From NCBI RefSeq assembly GCF_006265115.1, contig NZ_SMDR01000005.1, positions 106,352 to 170,351 on the forward strand: DNA of 64,000 nt, read 5' to 3'. The notes beneath the pieces were generated by a model, which was not told where the DNA came from, made no database searches, and saw only the letters and a program-made list of their open reading frames with translations. This document shows positions 32,288-38,381 of this stretch, in pieces (the stretch's first letter is position 1; every line of letters begins with the position of its first letter). Source of the DNA: Arenimonas terrae. GTDB lineage: Bacteria > Pseudomonadota > Gammaproteobacteria > Xanthomonadales > Xanthomonadaceae. The position numbers were made by a program, and so were the translations under genes.

Positions 32288-33304
32288 GTGAACCCGACCG
32301 ACTTGCCCGGCTCCCCTGCCGTCGCCGACCCGACGGCCGGTGCGGACCGCCTGCCGACCCAACTGTCTACGGAAGAGTTCCGGGTGCTGGCCGCGGCCGG
32401 CGTCAGCCGGGCGGTGCTGCCGGGGGAAGAGCTGTTCCGGCGCGGCGAGGCCGCGCAGAGCATGTTCCTTATCGACACGGGCGAAATCCGCCTGAGCTTC
32501 GACGACGGCCTGGCCGACAAGCTGCTCGGCCCGGGCCAGTACTTCGGCGAACTCGCGGTCTTCATCGGCCGGCACCAGCGCTTCGCGCGCGCCGTGGCCG
32601 AGACGCCGGGCGTGCTCTACGAAATCACCCAGGCCGCTTTCCAGGGCGTGATCGAACGCGAGCCGGCCCAGGTTGCGCGCTTCATGCAGCGCAGCTTCGC
32701 CTACCTGGTCGCCGGCGAGCACCAGCTGGTGCAGCACCTCAAGCGCCGCAACGAAGACCTGATGCAGACGCTCGACACCCTGCGCCAGACCCGCACCGAA
32801 CTCACCGTCGCCCAGCAGCTGGTGCGCACCGACGACCTGACCGGCCTGGCCAACCGCCGCGGCCTGTACCGGTTCCTGGACGAACTGGGCCGGCAGAACC
32901 TGAACGACCTCAAGCTGGCCCTGCTGCTGGTCGACATCGACCACTTCAAGCTGATCAACGACCGCAGCGGCCATCTGGCCGGCGACGCCGCCCTGCGCGC
33001 GGTCGCCGAGGAAGTGCGGCGCCTGGCCGGCCCGCTGGAACTGCCCTGCCGGCTGGGCGGCGACGAATTCGCCCTGGTGCTGCGGGTGAGCGACGACGGC
33101 GAGCTGGCCAACCGCGCTCTGGGCCTGATGAGCGCCGTGCGCAGCCTGCGCCTGCCCAGCCTGCGCGAGCACCGCCTGTCGGTGAGCATCGGCGGCGCCT
33201 TCTGCGAGGACCCGGGCGGCTGGTCGAACTGGTACAGCCAAGCCGACCGCTCCCTGTACGAAGCCAAGCGCCAGGGCGGCGACCACTGGCGGCTGGCCCG
33301 CTGA
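32288..33304 (+). CDS. Cyclic-nucleotide-binding domain fused to GGDEF diguanylate cyclase
   Basis: 338 residues with a GTG start. Residues ~35-145 are a CAP-like cyclic-nucleotide-binding domain (PGEELFRRGEAAQSMFLIDTG, then FGELAVF and an Arg-containing RFARAVAE at the phosphate-cassette position). A coiled linker follows, then a GGDEF domain from ~170 (TDDLTGLANRRG) with an intact GGDEF active site near 258-262. No RxxD inhibitory site precedes it. The layout predicts c-di-GMP synthesis gated by cNMP or a related ligand. Sixty-four bases downstream begins a class III cyclase-like gene. Confidence 0.9.
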   Translation: MNPTDLPGSPAVADPTAGADRLPTQLSTEEFRVLAAAGVSRAVLPGEELFRRGEAAQSMFLIDTGEIRLSFDDGLADKLLGPGQYFGELAVFIGRHQRFARAVAETPGVLYEITQAAFQGVIEREPAQVARFMQRSFAYLVAGEHQLVQHLKRRNEDLMQTLDTLRQTRTELTVAQQLVRTDDLTGLANRRGLYRFLDELGRQNLNDLKLALLLVDIDHFKLINDRSGHLAGDAALRAVAEEVRRLAGPLELPCRLGGDEFALVLRVSDDGELANRALGLMSAVRSLRLPSLREHRLSVSIGGAFCEDPGGWSNWYSQADRSLYEAKRQGGDHWRLAR

Positions 33305-33368: not shown

Positions 33369-35999
33369 ATGGATGCGCCCGAGCTCCGCCCGATGAATGC
33401 CCACGCTGCCGCCGTGACTCCGGTCCTGCGCACGGTCCTGCTGTGCGACATCGTCGAATCCACCGCCCTGGTCGAACGCCTGGGCGATGTGCGCGTGGTC
33501 GCGCTGCTGCAGAAGCACGACCGGCTGCTGCGAGAGGCCATGGCCTTCTGCCATGGCCAGCTGATCGACAAGGCCGACGGCGTGCTGGCCCTGTTCGAGC
33601 GGCCGATCCAGGCCCTGGATTTCGCCCTGCGCTACCAGCGCGGCCTGCGCGAACTGGGCGCCAGCGAGAAACTCGAGCTCAGGGCCCGCATCGGCATCCA
33701 CGTCGGCGACGTGATGATGTGGGCGAACGAACCCAAGGACGTGCTGGCGGGCGCCAAGGCCTTCGAGGTCGAGGGCCTGGCCAAGCCGGTCGCCGCGCGC
33801 CTGATGAACCTGGCGCTGCCGGGCCAGATCCTGATGTCGGGCATGGCCCAGAACCTGGCCCAGCGCGCGGTCGGGGAGCTGGGCGATGCCGGCGCGAACC
33901 TGCGCTGGTTGCTGCACGGCCGCTACAGCTTCAAGGGCGTGCCCGCGCCGATGCTGGTGCACGAAGTCGGCGAACCCGGCCTGTCGCCGCTGCGCGCCCC
34001 GACCTCGGGCGCCAAGGCCTGGCGGGAAGTGCCGCTGTGGCGGCGGCCGCCGGTGCTGGCACTGGAGCTGCTGCTGGTCGGCGTGCTGGGCACGGCGGTG
34101 TTCTGGACCACGCTGCGCAGTCCGCCCGCCATCGCCTTCGCCGAACGCGACTGGGTGGTGGTGGCCGACCTGCAGAACCGCACCGACGAGCCGGTGTTCG
34201 ACGACGCGCTGGACGTCGCCCTGCGCATCGGCCTGGAGCAGTCGCGGCACGTGAACCTGGTATCGGAGCTGCAGATCGACCGAGCGCTCGAGCGCATGCA
34301 GCGCCAGGGCCAGCCGGTGGACCGCCAGCTCGCCACCGAACTGGCGCTGCGCGAAGGCGCGAAGGCCGTGATCCTGCCCACCGTCGCCGAAGTCGGCGGC
34401 GTGGTGCGGGTGAGCCTGGAGGTGATCGATCCCAACAGCGGCGTCACCGTCTACAGCGAAAGCGCCGATGGCCGCGGCGCCGACGGGGTGCTTCCGGCGA
34501 TGGACGTGGCGATGGCCAACGTGCGCGGCAGGCTGGGCGAGGCCATGGCCAGCGTCGAAAACACCAGCCGGCCGCTGGAGCAGGTCACCACCGGCGACCT
34601 GGAGGCGCTGCGCGCGTTCTCTCTGGGCCTCAAGGCGCTGTGGGCGTCGCGCTATCCCGACGCGTGGTCGCTGTTCGAGCAGGCCGTCAAGCGCGATCCG
34701 GAGTTCGCGATGGCCTACCTGCGCATGGCCTTCATGCGCTACTCGGCCGGCGACGGGCCGGAGACGGAACGCCTGCTGGCCAAGGCGCAGGAGCACCGCG
34801 GGAACCTCAGCGAGCGCGAGGCGCTGTTCCTGGATGCCGCCGCCGAGGTCCTGAAAGGCCCGGACGCCGCGATGAGCAAGCTCAAGGTGCTGGCGGCGAT
34901 GTACCCGGACGAATACCGCGCCTATTACAACTTCGCCTACTTCGGCGTCCAGGACGCCCAGCGCTACCGGGAGGCGGCCGACTACCTGGCGCCGGCCATC
35001 GTCCCGCAGAACCCGATGCAGGCCTCGGCGGCCTACCTGCTGGGCAATGCGCTGCTGGCGGCGGGAGATACCGATGCGGCGCTGGCTGCCTTCCAGCGCG
35101 CCGACTCGCTCGGCGTCGGTGGGTTCAAGCGCAACCACGCCGAAGCCTTTGCGGTGCAGCGCCGCTACAGCGACGCGGACCGCGTGCTGCGGTCGCAGAC
35201 GCCCACCGGTTTCGACGACATCGACATCGGGCAGCAGCTCGCCCGGGTGTCCTTCAACGTGGACCGTGGCCGGATCCCCGACGCCCTGGATGCGGCGCGG
35301 GAGCTCGTGGGGAAGTCGCGAACGCTGGCTTCGCGCGCGCAGTGGACGCATCAGGGCGTGGAGCTGTCGCTGCGCGCCTATGCGAAGGACCCGGGGTTCG
35401 CAGCCGACCTGCGGGCGTACCAGCGGGTGTTGTCCGGACCGTTGGCATCGGCCACGCTTCAGGACCGCCGCCATCTCGAATTCAACCTGTTGGCGGCCGG
35501 ATGGATGGCCGCCTACAGCGGTGACCTGGCGCTGGCGCGACAGATCCTGGCGGAGCTGCCGCAGGCGGGGAAGAGCGCCTATCCCGCCAACGTGGGCATG
35601 GCGGCGGCGCTGCAGGCCGAGCTGGACCTGGCGGAGGGCCGACCCGCCGCTGCGCTCGCCAGGCTCACGCCGCTGGTCGACGACGGGCGCGAGCTGTATT
35701 TCGTGCGGGCGGTGCGGATGCGCGCGTTCGAGGCTTCGGGAGACCAGGAAAGCGCGCTCCGCGACGCCGAGTGGCTGCTGACGCAGCGCGGACGGGCGTT
35801 CGTCGAATACAACGCCGACCACGTCTGGCAGGCCGCGAACCTGATCGAGGCGAACCTCGCGCTGGAGGCGGCGTCGCGTTATGCCGACGCGCTGGGCAAG
35901 CCGGAGCTGGCCCAACGGCGCCGGAACGAATTCGGCGCAGCCTGGCCCGACTCCCGCCAGGTGCGCCAGATCCTCAGGCTAAGGGCGGGCAGGCACTGA
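33369..35999 (+). CDS. Class III adenylate/guanylate cyclase-like domain, membrane helix and TPR region
   Basis: 876 residues (alternative ATG 8 codons in). Residues ~20-195 are a class III nucleotidyl cyclase fold: metal-type Asp27 (LLCDIVEST) and Asp70 (KADGVLALF) are present, but the segment usually reading VN-x-AAR is GLAKPVAARL, so the transition-state Asn appears to be Pro. A membrane helix at ~226-248 follows, then a TolB-like stretch (VVVADLQNRTDEPVFDDAL) and TPR-like helices to the end. Such proteins are common in this family of bacteria. Catalysis is uncertain. The stop abuts the convergent precursor gene. Confidence 0.82.
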   Translation: MDAPELRPMNAHAAAVTPVLRTVLLCDIVESTALVERLGDVRVVALLQKHDRLLREAMAFCHGQLIDKADGVLALFERPIQALDFALRYQRGLRELGASEKLELRARIGIHVGDVMMWANEPKDVLAGAKAFEVEGLAKPVAARLMNLALPGQILMSGMAQNLAQRAVGELGDAGANLRWLLHGRYSFKGVPAPMLVHEVGEPGLSPLRAPTSGAKAWREVPLWRRPPVLALELLLVGVLGTAVFWTTLRSPPAIAFAERDWVVVADLQNRTDEPVFDDALDVALRIGLEQSRHVNLVSELQIDRALERMQRQGQPVDRQLATELALREGAKAVILPTVAEVGGVVRVSLEVIDPNSGVTVYSESADGRGADGVLPAMDVAMANVRGRLGEAMASVENTSRPLEQVTTGDLEALRAFSLGLKALWASRYPDAWSLFEQAVKRDPEFAMAYLRMAFMRYSAGDGPETERLLAKAQEHRGNLSEREALFLDAAAEVLKGPDAAMSKLKVLAAMYPDEYRAYYNFAYFGVQDAQRYREAADYLAPAIVPQNPMQASAAYLLGNALLAAGDTDAALAAFQRADSLGVGGFKRNHAEAFAVQRRYSDADRVLRSQTPTGFDDIDIGQQLARVSFNVDRGRIPDALDAARELVGKSRTLASRAQWTHQGVELSLRAYAKDPGFAADLRAYQRVLSGPLASATLQDRRHLEFNLLAAGWMAAYSGDLALARQILAELPQAGKSAYPANVGMAAALQAELDLAEGRPAAALARLTPLVDDGRELYFVRAVRMRAFEASGDQESALRDAEWLLTQRGRAFVEYNADHVWQAANLIEANLALEAASRYADALGKPELAQRRRNEFGAAWPDSRQVRQILRLRAGRH

Positions 36000-36287
36000 T
36001 CAGGACCGGCTGGTTTCCAGCGAGATCGGGTGGGCGGCGGCCTGGGCCGACAGCAGCTGCTTGCGCAGAGTGTCGCGGCTGGCCTTGATGCTGTCCTTGC
36101 TGGCGAGCCGGGAGACGGTCATGCAGCTCCAGGCGCCGCTTTCGACCTTCGCGTCCGCCGAAGGCCCATGGCCTAGCGACGCCAACGCGCGACGCGGATT
36201 CTTCTGGAAACTGTCGCGGAAATCGTCGTCGCTGGCGAGCTTGTCGAGCAATGCATCGACGGTTTCTTCGGAAAGCTGGTTGGACAT
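36000..36287 (-). CDS. NHLP-leader putative RiPP precursor, peptide 1
   Basis: 95 residues. Residues ~8-40 form an acidic helix with a nitrile-hydratase-leader-like pattern (LLDKLASDDDFRDSFQKNPRRALASLG). The tail carries W53, C55, T57, S63, S66, S70 and a PISLE block at 87-91. It aligns without gaps to the peptide encoded upstream at 36396-36701. Matches what I know of the 'putative modified peptide' family in Xanthomonadaceae, found with a dedicated maturation dehydrogenase. RBS AGGGGAA precedes the ATG. The product and any modification are unproven. Confidence 0.8.
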   Translation of the reverse strand: MSNQLSEETVDALLDKLASDDDFRDSFQKNPRRALASLGHGPSADAKVESGAWSCMTVSRLASKDSIKASRDTLRKQLLSAQAAAHPISLETSRS

Positions 36288-36395
36288 GGTGCATTCCCCT
36301 GGTGTTGGCGCATCGCGCCGAAAAGTTGAAAAGGCGCGACCTTTGCCCCGGCGCTCCCCGGCGGCCGGTGATCGCGGTGTGTCGCGGGCCTGGGT

Positions 36396-36701
36396 TCAGG
36401 CGACGCGTTTGCCGGCGGCAGGATTGATCTCGAGGGTGATCGGCGAATGGCCGGCGCGTTCGGCGGTGATCTGGCGGAACAACGCGGCGTGGCTGCTGCG
36501 CACCGATTCCTTGCTGGCCAGGGTGTCGACCGACAGGCACTTCCAGATTCCCGCCGTCACGCCCGCATCCGCGGCTGCCGCGAAACCGAGCTCCGCCAGT
36601 GCGGCACGCGCGTCGGCAGCGAAGCGGTCGCGGAAGGCGTCGTCATTGCCCAGCTTGTGCAGCAGGTCGAGCGCGATCGGTTCGGGTAGCGAAAACGACA
36701 T
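36396..36701 (-). CDS. NHLP-leader putative RiPP precursor, peptide 2
   Basis: 101 residues from the ATG of MSFSLPEPIALDLLHK; the long frame continuing upstream is a shadow of the enzyme gene opposite. It has the same leader (LLHKLGNDDAFRDRFAADARAALAELG) and tail (W53, C55, S57, S63, S66, S70, PITLE at 87-91) as peptide 1, plus a 10-residue C-terminal extension ending AAGKRVA. It is first in a two-gene minus-strand unit, 108 bases upstream of peptide 1, and is divergent from the dehydrogenase. Confidence 0.82.
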   Translation of the reverse strand: MSFSLPEPIALDLLHKLGNDDAFRDRFAADARAALAELGFAAAADAGVTAGIWKCLSVDTLASKESVRSSHAALFRQITAERAGHSPITLEINPAAGKRVA

Positions 36702-36790
36702 GGCGGATCCTCGATAGGCGCTTGGCGGCGCGCTTGCAAGATAAACCGCTGGGCTGGCACTGTCACCAGCCCCTCTGCCGAGCCTCCGCC
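36702..36790. promoter_or_regulatory. Divergent promoter region of the RiPP-like locus
   Basis: These 89 bases separate the precursor and dehydrogenase starts and should drive both. AAGATAAA (36744-36751) is the only AT-rich patch and could give a minus-strand -10 (TTATCTT). No clear operator was seen. Confidence 0.35.
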
Positions 36791-37966
36791 ATGCGCCTGC
36801 GCCGCTGCACCCACCTGATGGTCGAGCTGGACCAGGAGCCGCGCTTCGAGTTCTCGACCCTGCTTTCGGGCGGCGACGGCTTGGACCGCAGCCCGCGCTG
36901 GCGGGCCTATGCGCCGCACCTGACGGAGCCGGCGACGATCGGGCTGGAGGCGCTGGCCCTGCTGCAGACGGTCTCCCGGGACGACTGGGTTGCAAGGGAG
37001 GATCTGGAGCGCGGCCAGGCTGCGGACGTCGTCGCCGCCCTGCTGGCGGCCGGCCTGCTGATCCCCGACAGCGATGCGGAGGCGGTCGCCCGCGACCAGG
37101 CGGCCCGCGACATCGCCTGGTGGCCGCCGGCCTTGATCGCCCATGCCCACGGCGGCTGGGGCGACGTGGACATCCAGGCGCGCAACCAGAGCGGACTGAT
37201 GCTGAGCAGCCAGCAGATGGTCGACGCTTTCGGGGCCGCGCCGGAGCCGGCGTACCGGCGGTCGCCCGCAGCCGAGCCGGTCGCGCTGGCCGCGCCGGCC
37301 CGCAGCGACTTCGACGAACTGCTCGCGGCACGGCGGACTTGCCGGAACTTCGACGGTGCGGCGGTGCTGGGCCGCACCGACTTCGCGACGATGATGCGGC
37401 GGGTCTGGGGCGCGATCGGCACCCGTGAACTCGCGCCCGGCGCGGTGGCGGTGAAGAAGAACAGCCCGGCCGGCGGCGGCCTGCATGCGGTCGAGGCCTA
37501 TGTGCTGGTGCAGCGGGTCGAGGGCCTGGCCCCCGGGATCTACCACTACCTGGCGATGGAGCACGCGCTTGAGCCGCTGCGCACGCTGACGGCGGAAGAC
37601 GCCGCGAGCTGGGCGCACCGTTTCGTCGCGGGCCAGGACTGGTTCAACAACGCGCCGGTGATGGTGGTGATGACGGCGCGCTTCGACCGGCTGTTCTGGA
37701 AGTACCGGCGACACACCAAGGCCTGGCGGGTGGTGCACCTGGACGTCGGGCACCTGTCGCAGACCATGTACCTGTCGGCCACCGAGCGGGGGCTGGGCTG
37801 TTTCGTCACCGCGGCGATCAACGACCGCGCGGTGGAGGAAGCGCTGGCGCTGCCGGCGTTGCGCGAGGGGCCGATCGCGATCGTCGGCTTCGGTGCCCGT
37901 TCGGGCGAGGTCCGCACGATGGAGCTGGAGGTGTTCGAGCCGGTCCGGCCGGCGAACGCGGGCTGA
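36791..37966 (+). CDS. SagB-like nitroreductase-fold peptide maturation dehydrogenase
   Basis: 391 residues. Residues ~40-100 look like a small winged-helix domain (IGLEALALLQTVSRDDWVAR, then VVAALLAAGLLI), possibly a leader-recognition element. From ~170 it is a SagB/nitroreductase domain: RRTCRNF for FMN phosphate, KKNSPAGGGLHAVEAYV in place of the usual PSAGALYPVE loop, and LDVGHLSQTMYLSATERGLG near 320. SagB-type enzymes oxidise azolines to azoles on RiPPs. It faces two precursor genes. No YcaO enzyme is nearby, so its substrate chemistry is open. Corresponds to the family I know as 'putative peptide maturation dehydrogenase'. Confidence 0.85.
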   Translation: MRLRRCTHLMVELDQEPRFEFSTLLSGGDGLDRSPRWRAYAPHLTEPATIGLEALALLQTVSRDDWVAREDLERGQAADVVAALLAAGLLIPDSDAEAVARDQAARDIAWWPPALIAHAHGGWGDVDIQARNQSGLMLSSQQMVDAFGAAPEPAYRRSPAAEPVALAAPARSDFDELLAARRTCRNFDGAAVLGRTDFATMMRRVWGAIGTRELAPGAVAVKKNSPAGGGLHAVEAYVLVQRVEGLAPGIYHYLAMEHALEPLRTLTAEDAASWAHRFVAGQDWFNNAPVMVVMTARFDRLFWKYRRHTKAWRVVHLDVGHLSQTMYLSATERGLGCFVTAAINDRAVEEALALPALREGPIAIVGFGARSGEVRTMELEVFEPVRPANAG

Positions 37967-37967
37967 G

Positions 37968-38381
37968 TCAGCCGCCGAGTCCGCCCACGCGCTTGAGGCC
38001 GTCGTCGCCGACCTGCAGCCAGGGCACGTGGTCGTCGTAGGAGACGTGCACCTGCGGTTCGCGGTCGAGCGGGCCGTCGAAGTTGCTGCGCACGATGTGC
38101 AGCTCGCCGGGCCAGCGTTCGGAGCGGAAGAACAGCGTGGTGCCGCAGCGGCTGCAGAAGCCGCGTCCGGCGCCGGGCGAGGATTCGTACCAGTGCAGCC
38201 GCGACTGGGAGTCGTCGAAACGAACCGCTTCGGACTTGAAACCCACCCAGGTCACCAGCGGCGCGCCGTGGGCGCGACGGCACATCGAGCAGTGGCAGTG
38301 CGCGACCCATTTGCTGGGGAGCTGCGCTTGGAAGCGCAGGTCGCCGCAGAGGCAGCTTCCGGTGGTCGTCGTCGCAGTCAT
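37968..38381 (-). CDS. GFA-domain (glutathione-dependent formaldehyde-activating-like) zinc protein
   Basis: 137 residues. Zinc-binding cysteines are visible in GSCLCGDLRF, CHCSMCRRAHGAP and FCSRCGTTLFF, the standard GFA/CENP-V pattern. Family members bind two zincs; true formaldehyde-glutathione chemistry is shown for few. Its stop is one base from the stop of the convergent dehydrogenase, so it is probably unrelated to that locus. The fold is certain, the function is not. Confidence 0.88.
   Translation of the reverse strand: MTATTTTGSCLCGDLRFQAQLPSKWVAHCHCSMCRRAHGAPLVTWVGFKSEAVRFDDSQSRLHWYESSPGAGRGFCSRCGTTLFFRSERWPGELHIVRSNFDGPLDREPQVHVSYDDHVPWLQVGDDGLKRVGGLGG

What the first reader, a model, noticed from the sequence alone, without database searches (positions are those of the whole stretch)
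36000..37966. Compact RiPP-like locus: two NHLP-type precursors facing a SagB-like dehydrogenase
Two small genes with acidic leader helices of NHLP type and short Cys/Ser/Thr-bearing tails lie divergently from a nitroreductase-fold enzyme. The pairing agrees with the 'putative modified peptide' and 'putative peptide maturation dehydrogenase' families I know from Xanthomonadaceae; I know of no characterised product. There is no YcaO cyclodehydratase, radical SAM enzyme, transporter or leader protease in the window, so either a minimal pathway or distant partners are needed.
Basis: partly seen in the sequence, partly recalled or inferred. Interest (0 to 1): 0.82.

Follow-up and report, generated by a model that had tools for sequence, protein, structure and literature searches.

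The report
Swappable peptide signal and receptor cyclase
Two small peptide genes and a gene for a likely peptide-modifying enzyme sit beside a gene for a membrane protein predicted to make the messenger cGMP, and in related bacteria the peptide gene, the enzyme gene and the predicted outer half of that membrane protein are exchanged together as one block while the DNA on both sides stays closely similar, so the peptide is likely a signal between cells that the outer half would read.

Summary
In detail: two TIGR04509 precursors (36000-36287, 36396-36701, -) face a TIGR04511 SagB-like dehydrogenase (36791-37966, +). Missed next door: a receptor-like class III cyclase (TIGR04510, 33369-35999) and a cNMP-binding/GGDEF protein (32288-33304), homologues of the Xanthomonas campestris XC_0250/XC_0249 cGMP-to-c-di-GMP pathway, whose input is unknown. 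In one draw of 250 genomes the three TIGR families are above cut-off in the same 57; the cNMP-GGDEF gene adjoins the cyclase in 51 of 57; YcaO is in 3 of 57. New is a swap pattern: of 24 locus pairs with at least 90% identical GGDEF protein and cyclase domain, 16 differ in the cyclase's predicted periplasmic half, precursor and dehydrogenase together, 8 agree in all three, none is mixed. Matching DNA stops behind the membrane helix and resumes in or just behind the dehydrogenase. This is the logic of ComQXPA/agr pherotypes. Best reading: the dehydrogenase-modified peptide is the ligand of a receptor guanylate cyclase. Modification, export and ligand role are untested, and the window's own genus shows fast divergence, not a clean swap.

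The parts
32288..33304 (+). cNMP-binding + GGDEF protein, homologue of XC_0249 (predicted cGMP-responsive diguanylate cyclase)
   Evidence: PF00027 60 bits and PF00990 113.1 bits; 51 of 51 aligned counterparts carry both domains; matches 5h5o (129 aa) at 8.5e-22; equivalents of XC_0249 F73, E90, H98 and E146 invariant in 51 of 51, that of N145 is N in 34, S in 12, G in 5 including this window; GGDEF motif intact in 51 of 51
33369..35999 (+). receptor-like class III nucleotidyl cyclase, TIGR04510, homologue of XC_0250
   Evidence: 874.1 bits, cut-off 400; AF2 mean pLDDT 84.7. Pfam Guanylate_cyc is below its gathering score (17.7 of 21.9 bits)
33414..33971 (+). predicted cytoplasmic cyclase domain (residues 16-201); diverges together with the cNMP-GGDEF protein
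   Evidence: sequence match to Ma1120 cyclase 4.9e-14; Foldseek matches to Rv1900c and Ma1120 cyclases, TMt about 0.7-0.8; D27 in 50 and D70 in 51 of 52 chosen rows; r 0.81-0.85 with the cNMP-GGDEF protein
34047..34118 (+). predicted membrane helix (residues 227-250)
   Evidence: AF2 helix; Kyte-Doolittle maximum at least 1.6 here in 43 of 43 loci, and in the TPR part in 2 of 43
34149..35987 (+). predicted periplasmic half: alpha/beta domain (261-396) and long TPR superhelix (411-873); counterpart of the swapped receptor half
   Evidence: AF2; diverges with precursor and dehydrogenase; left swap borders in relatives fall at window-equivalent residues 267-414
36000..36287 (-). precursor peptide 1, TIGR04509 (95 aa)
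   Evidence: 86.2 bits, cut-off 34; conserved helices, WxC and mostly PIxLE tail in 20 aligned sequences
36396..36701 (-). precursor peptide 2, TIGR04509 (101 aa)
   Evidence: 63.1 bits, cut-off 34
36702..36790 (.). divergent intergenic region between precursor 2 and dehydrogenase
   Evidence: 89 bp; no CRP-like site in excess of shuffles over 46 such regions
36791..37966 (+). SagB-like dehydrogenase, TIGR04511, with a predicted N-terminal winged-helix region

Best explanation
The locus carries two precursor-peptide genes, a SagB-like dehydrogenase gene and a cyclase gene, and because in related bacteria the 3' half of the cyclase gene, the precursor and the dehydrogenase are exchanged as one block, it is likely a peptide-pheromone (pherotype) locus in which the dehydrogenase-modified peptide would be the ligand of a receptor guanylate cyclase. 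Steps: (1) the conserved helical N-terminal part of the precursor is bound by the N-terminal winged-helix region of the dehydrogenase (inferred); (2) without YcaO, the flavin enzyme oxidises a residue of the precursor, most likely by dehydrogenation, as the nitroreductase domain of PflD does on an NHLP precursor (inferred by analogy); (3) the product is trimmed and exported by proteins coded elsewhere (unknown); (4) the predicted periplasmic TPR half of the receptor binds it (inferred from co-exchange); (5) the cyclase domain makes cGMP (shown for the homologue XC_0250, PMC3770947); (6) cGMP binds the cNMP domain of the neighbour and raises its c-di-GMP synthesis (shown for the homologue XC_0249), which would set biofilm behaviour.
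For: The three TIGR families are above cut-off in the same 57 of 250 genomes; a cNMP-GGDEF gene lies upstream of the cyclase on the same strand in 51 of 57, at most 606 bp away. Homology to XC_0249/XC_0250: residues and layout line up. Distance matrices of 43 single-copy loci: the cyclase domain follows the cNMP-GGDEF protein (r 0.81-0.85) and hardly the precursor or dehydrogenase (partial r 0.05-0.11); the TPR half of the same protein follows precursor leader 0.62, tail 0.60 and dehydrogenase catalytic domain 0.72 (partial 0.53-0.67). With aceA/aceB as species control (40 loci) the picture is the same, and along the protein the two correlations cross just behind the membrane helix. Allele exchange: of 903 pairs 24 are near; 16 differ in TPR half, precursor and dehydrogenase together, 8 agree in all, 0 mixed. 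DNA: L131/L150 97.2% left flank, 98.8% right flank, no matching piece of 300 bp or more in the 3516 bp between; left borders at residues 267-414 in all 16 pairs. Gene orientation swaps too (L131 vs L150). YcaO in 3 of 57 carriers; fold of ThcOx/McbC-type peptide oxidases. Orphan receptor halves without cyclase domain in L116/L117 are about 50% identical to receptors of another type but 32-34% to their resident receptor.
Against: No experiment on peptide, modification, export or ligand binding. No exporter or leader protease was recognised in the locus; C39 has no match in 19 of 57 carriers. The TPR half is predicted periplasmic, so the peptide must cross the membrane by an unknown route. The 16 differing pairs come from only 3 groups of related loci (11 loci, at least 5 exchanges), and co-exchange of adjacent DNA can reflect linkage. 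The TPR half also keeps some correlation with the GGDEF protein (partial 0.27, 0 of 500 permutations). In three pairs the dehydrogenases of different types still match at 66-68% DNA identity. In the window's own genus (4 relatives) the TPR half is 38-42% identical while the GGDEF protein and cyclase domain are 77-90%, but the domain 261-396 (74-81%) and the dehydrogenase catalytic domain (71-83%) are not far behind: fast divergence, not a clean swap. The position of the transition-state Asn of class III cyclases (assignment mine) is Pro in 49 of 52 rows.
Confidence: 0.5

Rival explanations
1. Peptide toxin with a matching membrane partner: the modified peptide would be a bacteriocin-like product and the TPR half a sensor or immunity partner for self-recognition; alleles differ because of competition between strains.
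For: Toxin-immunity pairs also show linked allele exchange (recalled). Orphan receptor halves without a cyclase domain (L116, L117) resemble stored immunity genes. G235 carries 9 precursor matches and 5 dehydrogenase matches, one of these below cut-off.
Against: The varying half is fused to a cyclase domain that diverges with a cNMP-GGDEF effector; its homologue affects biofilm through cGMP (PMC3770947). No exporter recognised in the locus. PADLOC has no match for precursors, dehydrogenase or cyclase, and four matches for the GGDEF protein that cover only its cNMP part.
Confidence: 0.15
2. Peptide used by the producing cell only: the precursor is modified and acts inside the cell or in the envelope of the same cell, for example as a regulatory part of the cyclase, without passing between cells.
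For: No export genes recognised in the locus; the precursor is conserved over much of its length, with two helical blocks.
Against: The receptor half that follows the peptide is predicted periplasmic. Block exchange of receptor half, peptide and enzyme on closely similar chromosomes is what selection on communication or conflict gives, rather than a housekeeping part (inference).
Confidence: 0.2
3. The linkage is only physical: recombination in this region swaps a block of about 2.5-4 kb that happens to contain half of the cyclase gene; the peptide system and the cyclase do not interact.
For: Genes are adjacent; any block recombination gives correlated divergence of neighbours.
Against: All 16 left borders fall inside one gene, behind the membrane helix. 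Above cut-off the three TIGR families are never found apart in 250 genomes. Gene orientation differs between cassettes while the set stays the same.
Confidence: 0.12

Closest known systems
NCBIfam set TIGR04509/TIGR04510/TIGR04511 (NHLP-related RiPP peptide, putative peptide modification system cyclase, putative peptide maturation dehydrogenase)
   Same: All three families above cut-off in this window and in the same 57 of 250 genomes
   Different: Known as names: searches of the paper library for these names and accessions listed no work on them (the two papers are on human or drug topics). The cNMP-GGDEF partner and the allele exchange are not part of the three names
XC_0249/XC_0250 cGMP to c-di-GMP pathway of Xanthomonas campestris (PMC3770947; abstract, sections 5, 8, 12, 19, 23 and passages seen; figures and supplement not held)
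   Same: Adjacent homologues, same domain layout, matching cGMP-contact residues except N145
   Different: The main text has no occurrence of 'peptide', XC_0251 or XC_0252; its Figure 1A shows the genomic context, which I could not see; the TPR part is called uncharacterised and no input signal is named in what I saw
ComQXPA quorum sensing of Bacillus (PMC4408185, PMC4008528; start of abstract and passages) and agr of staphylococci (recalled)
   Same: Modifying enzyme and precursor genes are strongly polymorphic in linked communication groups; that the receptor's sensor half varies with them while the output half stays conserved is recalled
   Different: There the receptor is a histidine kinase and the enzyme an isoprenyl transferase; here a nitroreductase-fold enzyme and a receptor cyclase in Gram-negative bacteria. 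No peptide has been isolated here
PflA/PflD of Pseudomonas (PMC12636437; passages)
   Same: NHLP-type precursor and a nitroreductase domain acting without YcaO; installs Z-dehydrophenylalanine
   Different: PflD is fused to an MNIO domain and its locus has two transporters and a HEXXH enzyme; no receptor cyclase is mentioned in the passages seen
ThcOx, McbC, BmdC oxidases
   Different: Those partner with a cyclodehydratase or an NRPS (partly recalled); here 54 of 57 carriers have no YcaO match

Membership tests
TIGR04509 NHLP-related RiPP peptide | score over curated cut-off 34 | tested here: met
   86.2 and 63.1 bits
TIGR03793 classical NHLP leader family | score over curated cut-off 50.9 | tested here: not met
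   precursor 1 17.1 bits, precursor 2 not listed
TIGR04511 / SagB family dehydrogenase | score over curated cut-offs | tested here: met
   457.6 (cut-off 240) and 109.8 (78.4) bits
RiPP biosynthetic locus | precursor is post-translationally modified by the linked enzyme | not testable with these tools
   needs mass spectrometry
RiPP biosynthetic locus | RRE-type leader-binding domain | tested here: inconclusive
   AF2 shows strands and a three-helix winged unit at residues 1-92; the ThcOx alignment spans model 1-372, but that region was not searched alone
TOMM/azole pathway | YcaO cyclodehydratase in the genome | tested here: not met
   no match in the own genome; 3 of 57 carriers
Cyclase family TIGR04510 (XC_0250 type) | score over cut-off and metal-binding Asp | tested here: met
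   874.1 bits, cut-off 400; D40 and D70 correspond to the paper's D41 and D71 with offset 1 and are nearly invariant; Pfam Guanylate_cyc itself is below gathering
Cyclase family TIGR04510 (XC_0250 type) | makes cGMP | not testable with these tools
   shown for XC_0250 (PMC3770947), not for this protein
XC_0249-type cGMP-binding diguanylate cyclase | cNMP + GGDEF domains and cGMP contacts F73, E90, H98, N145, E146 | tested here: inconclusive
   both domains present; 4 of 5 contacts present, N145 is Gly here
Pherotype locus (ComQXPA/agr-like) | precursor, modifying enzyme and receptor sensor half vary as one allele, output half conserved | tested here: met
   24 near pairs: 16 all different, 8 all alike, 0 mixed; borders. 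Met in 3 groups of related loci of the family; not shown as a clean swap in the window's own genus
Pherotype locus (ComQXPA/agr-like) | secreted peptide activates the cognate receptor | not testable with these tools
   no experiment

The most novel reading that the evidence does not exclude
A bacterial receptor guanylate cyclase that is switched by a ribosomal, oxidatively modified peptide pheromone: peptide-hormone-to-cGMP receptor logic in bacteria, with exchangeable specificity cassettes (periplasmic receptor half, precursor, dehydrogenase) on a fixed cGMP-to-c-di-GMP chassis, dividing xanthomonads and their relatives into pherotypes.
Probability: 0.42. Interest if true: 0.95.

Novelty: new variant of a known kind. 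Interest (0 to 1): 0.84.

Why it matters
The cGMP pathway of xanthomonads has a known enzyme and a known effector but, in what I could read, no known input. The co-exchange of receptor half, peptide and enzyme names a candidate ligand and the part of the receptor that would read it, and gives natural allele pairs on closely similar chromosomes for a direct test. If true, it adds a peptide-gated receptor cyclase to bacterial cell-cell signalling, links RiPP-type chemistry to c-di-GMP, and gives a use for dehydrogenases that work without a cyclodehydratase.

Tried and rejected
Azole/TOMM pathway: rejected, no YcaO match in the own genome, 3 of 57 carriers. C39 peptidase-transporter as a fixed partner: rejected as a requirement; 38 of 57 carriers and 76 of 193 non-carriers have a match (my count). 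The own genome's two C39 matches were fetched but not characterised. CRP/Clp-type site in the divergent promoter: 46 intergenic stretches, none with 2 or fewer mismatches, no excess over shuffles. Anti-phage system: no PADLOC match for four of the five proteins; the GGDEF protein matches four families through its cNMP part only. Another output domain in place of the cyclase: Pfam shows none in L116, L117, L118, but it also misses the cyclase domain in the full receptors L097 and L137 of the same call, so this is weak; L118 keeps both D27 and D70. Wider spread: of 398 genomes of the phylum 8 are over the TIGR04511 cut-off, all in this order; weaker matches in two other families were not followed beyond one ORF list. 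The genes aceB and aceA have a match in 47 of the 60 stretches examined; taken as conserved synteny, not as part of the system. Not tested: radical SAM, polymorphism within one species (one genome per species is held), dN/dS.

Rows dropped and choices: the distance work used 43 loci with one copy of each gene (the window with precursor 1 only) out of 60 stretches (59 fetched plus the window); 40 of 43 for the aceA/aceB control. Alignment A2 holds 52 of 61 cyclase frames, A3 the window and 71 of 120 listed relatives (401 found), chosen by me. The thresholds for 'alike' and 'different' cassettes (TPR 60/45%, dehydrogenase 75%, leader 65%) were set. The permutation counts do not remove all effects of shared descent. 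One search shows nine pairs that I picked; all 16 differing pairs with pieces of 300 bp or more. In six of these 16 one search counts one matching piece inside the interval: one search shows that in three (L097 with L111, L113, L115) it lies in the dehydrogenase at 66-67% identity, and in three (L154 with L111, L113, L115) it is the flank resuming just behind the dehydrogenase.
Full report
What is there. On the - strand are two precursor genes, 36000-36287 and 36396-36701; on the + strand the dehydrogenase 36791-37966. NCBIfam places them in TIGR04509 (86.2 and 63.1 bits, cut-off 34) and TIGR04511 (457.6 bits, cut-off 240); the dehydrogenase is also above the SagB cut-off. The gene that ends against precursor 1, 33369-35999 (+), is TIGR04510, 'putative peptide modification system cyclase' (874.1 bits, cut-off 400), and before it lies a cNMP-binding plus GGDEF protein, 32288-33304. 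The finding mentions neither.

Co-conservation. In one fixed draw of 250 genomes of the order, each of the three TIGR families is above cut-off in 57 genomes, and the listings name the same 57. I fetched the loci of the other 56 in 59 pieces and added the window. A cNMP-GGDEF gene lies upstream of the cyclase on the same strand in 51 of 57 genomes, overlapping or at most 606 bp away by frame ends (start codons not refined). In 48 of 58 cyclase-bearing pieces the precursor runs opposite to the cyclase and the dehydrogenase along it. All 51 GGDEF proteins have both Pfam domains. That the NCBIfam models were built from co-occurring genes is likely (recalled), so the co-occurrence of the three is not itself new; the cNMP-GGDEF partner is not among the three names.

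Link to published work. PMC3770947 (abstract, sections 5, 8, 12, 19, 23 and passages) shows that XC_0250 of Xanthomonas campestris makes cGMP and that the linked XC_0249 binds cGMP through its cNMP domain and then makes more c-di-GMP, with effects on biofilm and virulence. XC_0250 is 886 aa with a cyclase at 32-191 and TPRs from 413 on; the window protein is 876 aa with the same layout. The paper's residues D41, D71, L73, A150, L157, A161 fall with an offset of one on D40, D70, V72, A149, M156 and A160 of the window; positions 72 and 156 are Leu in the family consensus (read). The paper takes D41 and D71 as the metal-binding pair; by the usual spacing I would take D27 and D70, and both D40 and D27 are nearly invariant. 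For XC_0249 the contacts F73, E90, H98, E146 fall with an offset of two on F71, E88, H96, E144, invariant in 51 of 51; N145 corresponds to Gly143 here and is N in 34 of 51. Chain 5h5o, matched by the window protein at 8.5e-22, carries exactly these residues when its numbering is shifted by 22 (read), so I take it as the XC_0249 domain; the tool names it only 'Diguanylate cyclase' and the paper's code is 4KG1. The main text of the paper has no 'peptide', XC_0251 or XC_0252; its figure of the genomic context could not be seen. A 2019 review (PMC8042644, one passage) still calls the TPR part uncharacterised; a 2022 review of c-di-GMP sensing has no mention of XC_0249 or XC_0250 by name (PMC8846402). 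In the listings of nine library searches (one search showed 20 of 67 papers) I saw no paper joining the two subjects.

The enzyme. AlphaFold2 gives a confident model (pLDDT 90.3). Best solved matches are the cyanobactin oxidase ThcOx, BmdC and McbC (sequence matches). K304-Y305 are invariant in 72 of 72 aligned rows and fall on the same Lys-Tyr of ThcOx in the printed alignment; that this pair is catalytic in SagB enzymes is recalled. The N-terminal 92 residues form strands and a three-helix winged unit, as in leader-binding domains; this is a reading of the predicted model, not a tested membership. With no YcaO match in the own genome and in 54 of 57 carriers, the substrate is probably not an azoline. 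PflD of Pseudomonas (PMC12636437, passages) is a precedent for a nitroreductase domain that desaturates Phe in an NHLP precursor without YcaO.

The precursor. In 78 precursors the leader positions L17, D20, D21, F23, R24, P31, A34, G39 and a second block L61-A62-x-K64 are conserved (62 to 77 of 78 each); the tail is not, and 66 of 78 contain Cys somewhere. In 18 listed relatives (one, P0241, may stand for the window's own) plus the two window peptides, C55 and G51 are invariant, W53 nearly so, and the tail reads mostly P-I-x-L-E. Which residue is modified is unknown.

Two halves of the receptor with two partners. For 43 single-copy loci I compared protein distance matrices. The cyclase domain follows the cNMP-GGDEF protein (r 0.85 and 0.81) and hardly the precursor or dehydrogenase (partial r 0.05 to 0.11). 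The TPR half of the same protein follows the precursor leader (0.62), tail (0.60) and dehydrogenase catalytic domain (0.72); partial values 0.53-0.67, 0 of 500 permutations as high. With aceA/aceB as species yardstick (40 loci) the partial values with precursor and dehydrogenase are 0.61-0.70 for the TPR half and 0.06-0.14 for the cyclase domain; between cyclase domain and cNMP-GGDEF 0.65, between TPR half and cNMP-GGDEF 0.27. In 60-residue windows the correlation with the GGDEF protein falls from 0.89 to 0.36 and that with precursor plus dehydrogenase rises from 0.31 to 0.57 between the first window and the one starting at residue 256, just behind the membrane helix; further on they range over 0.11-0.41 and 0.37-0.74. 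The TPR half is the fastest part, but the slower domain 261-396 (mean distance 0.70, near the GGDEF protein's 0.61-0.65) behaves the same way, so rate alone does not explain it.

Allele exchange. Listing pairs showed the cause. L131 and L150 have identical GGDEF proteins and cyclase domains (rounded) but 24% identical TPR halves, 13% tails and 41% dehydrogenase catalytic domains. Of 903 pairs, 24 have at least 90% identity in both the GGDEF protein and the cyclase domain; in 16 the TPR half, precursor and dehydrogenase are all different, in 8 all alike, in none mixed. The 16 come from three groups of related loci (11 loci), so at least five exchanges, not 16. DNA shows sharp mosaics. For L131/L150 the match is 97.2% up to residue 270 and 98.8% again from 250 bp behind the dehydrogenase of L131, with no piece of 300 bp or more in the 3516 bp between. 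Over the 16 pairs left flanks are 88.1-97.2% and right flanks 78.1-98.8% identical; left borders lie at window-equivalent residues 267-414, behind the membrane helix at 227-250. Matching DNA resumes inside the dehydrogenase in three pairs and within 250 bp behind it, counted in at least one of the two loci, in the other thirteen (read). In three of those thirteen (L097 with L111, L113, L115) the dehydrogenases also match weakly (66-68%) within the block. G101, G136, G170, G185, G190 and G249 are single-contig genomes, so assembly mixing is unlikely for these. Gene orientation travels with the cassette (L150, L151, L154 have the dehydrogenase reversed). In L116 and L117 an extra receptor half with membrane helix but no cyclase domain follows the dehydrogenase; it is about 50% identical to receptors of another type and 32-34% to its resident, as a left-over of an earlier exchange would be.

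In the window itself. Against four congeners the window has 84-90% identity in the GGDEF protein, 77-83% in the cyclase domain, 74-81% in the domain 261-396, 38-42% in the TPR half, 59-69% in the leader and 28-63% in the tail of precursor 1, 39-59% in the dehydrogenase N-terminus and 71-83% in its catalytic domain. The TPR half and the tail are the fast parts, but this is not a clean swap, and I do not claim one for the window.

How it most likely works. Shown in homologues: cGMP synthesis, cGMP binding, c-di-GMP synthesis, effect on biofilm. Shown here: gene set, order, co-divergence, block exchange. Inferred: modification, export, ligand role, pherotypes. Polymorphic modifying enzyme and precursor in linked communication groups are documented for ComQXPA (PMC4408185 and PMC4008528, start of abstract and passages); that the sensor half of the receptor varies with them on a conserved output half, there and in agr, is recalled. 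I therefore prefer a peptide-pheromone reading, at 0.5. The weakest step is export: no transporter or protease was recognised in the locus and C39 genes are not shared by all carriers.

Verdict. The NCBIfam system is known as a name; its connection to the cGMP pathway and the exchange of specificity cassettes were not seen in the papers searched here.

Noticed in passing
window 29108 to about 32130: Relatives of malate synthase and isocitrate lyase (aceB, aceA) lie upstream of the cNMP-GGDEF gene; both have a match in 47 of the 60 stretches examined.
   Followed up: partly
L139 (G235:C2:338500-358000): One genome carries 9 precursor matches and 5 dehydrogenase matches (one short, below cut-off) around a single cyclase in about 15 kb; no cNMP-GGDEF neighbour was found.
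   Followed up: no
L116 10435-12360, L117 10166-12091: Extra receptor halves with membrane helix and TPR part but no cyclase domain, of another type than the resident receptor.
   Followed up: yes
L133: Two complete cyclase-precursor-dehydrogenase units in tandem; the two cyclases are 48% identical.
   Followed up: partly
L148 2821-5460: Second cyclase copy in G059, on another contig, with the positions of D27 and D70 changed to E and G.
   Followed up: no
L165: A weaker dehydrogenase relative in another family of the class, in a different gene setting, next to a 340-aa frame that was not identified.
   Followed up: no
window 37968-38381: A GFA-family gene on the - strand ends one base beyond the dehydrogenase, running against it; a relative is labelled in 6 of 60 stretches.
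   Followed up: no
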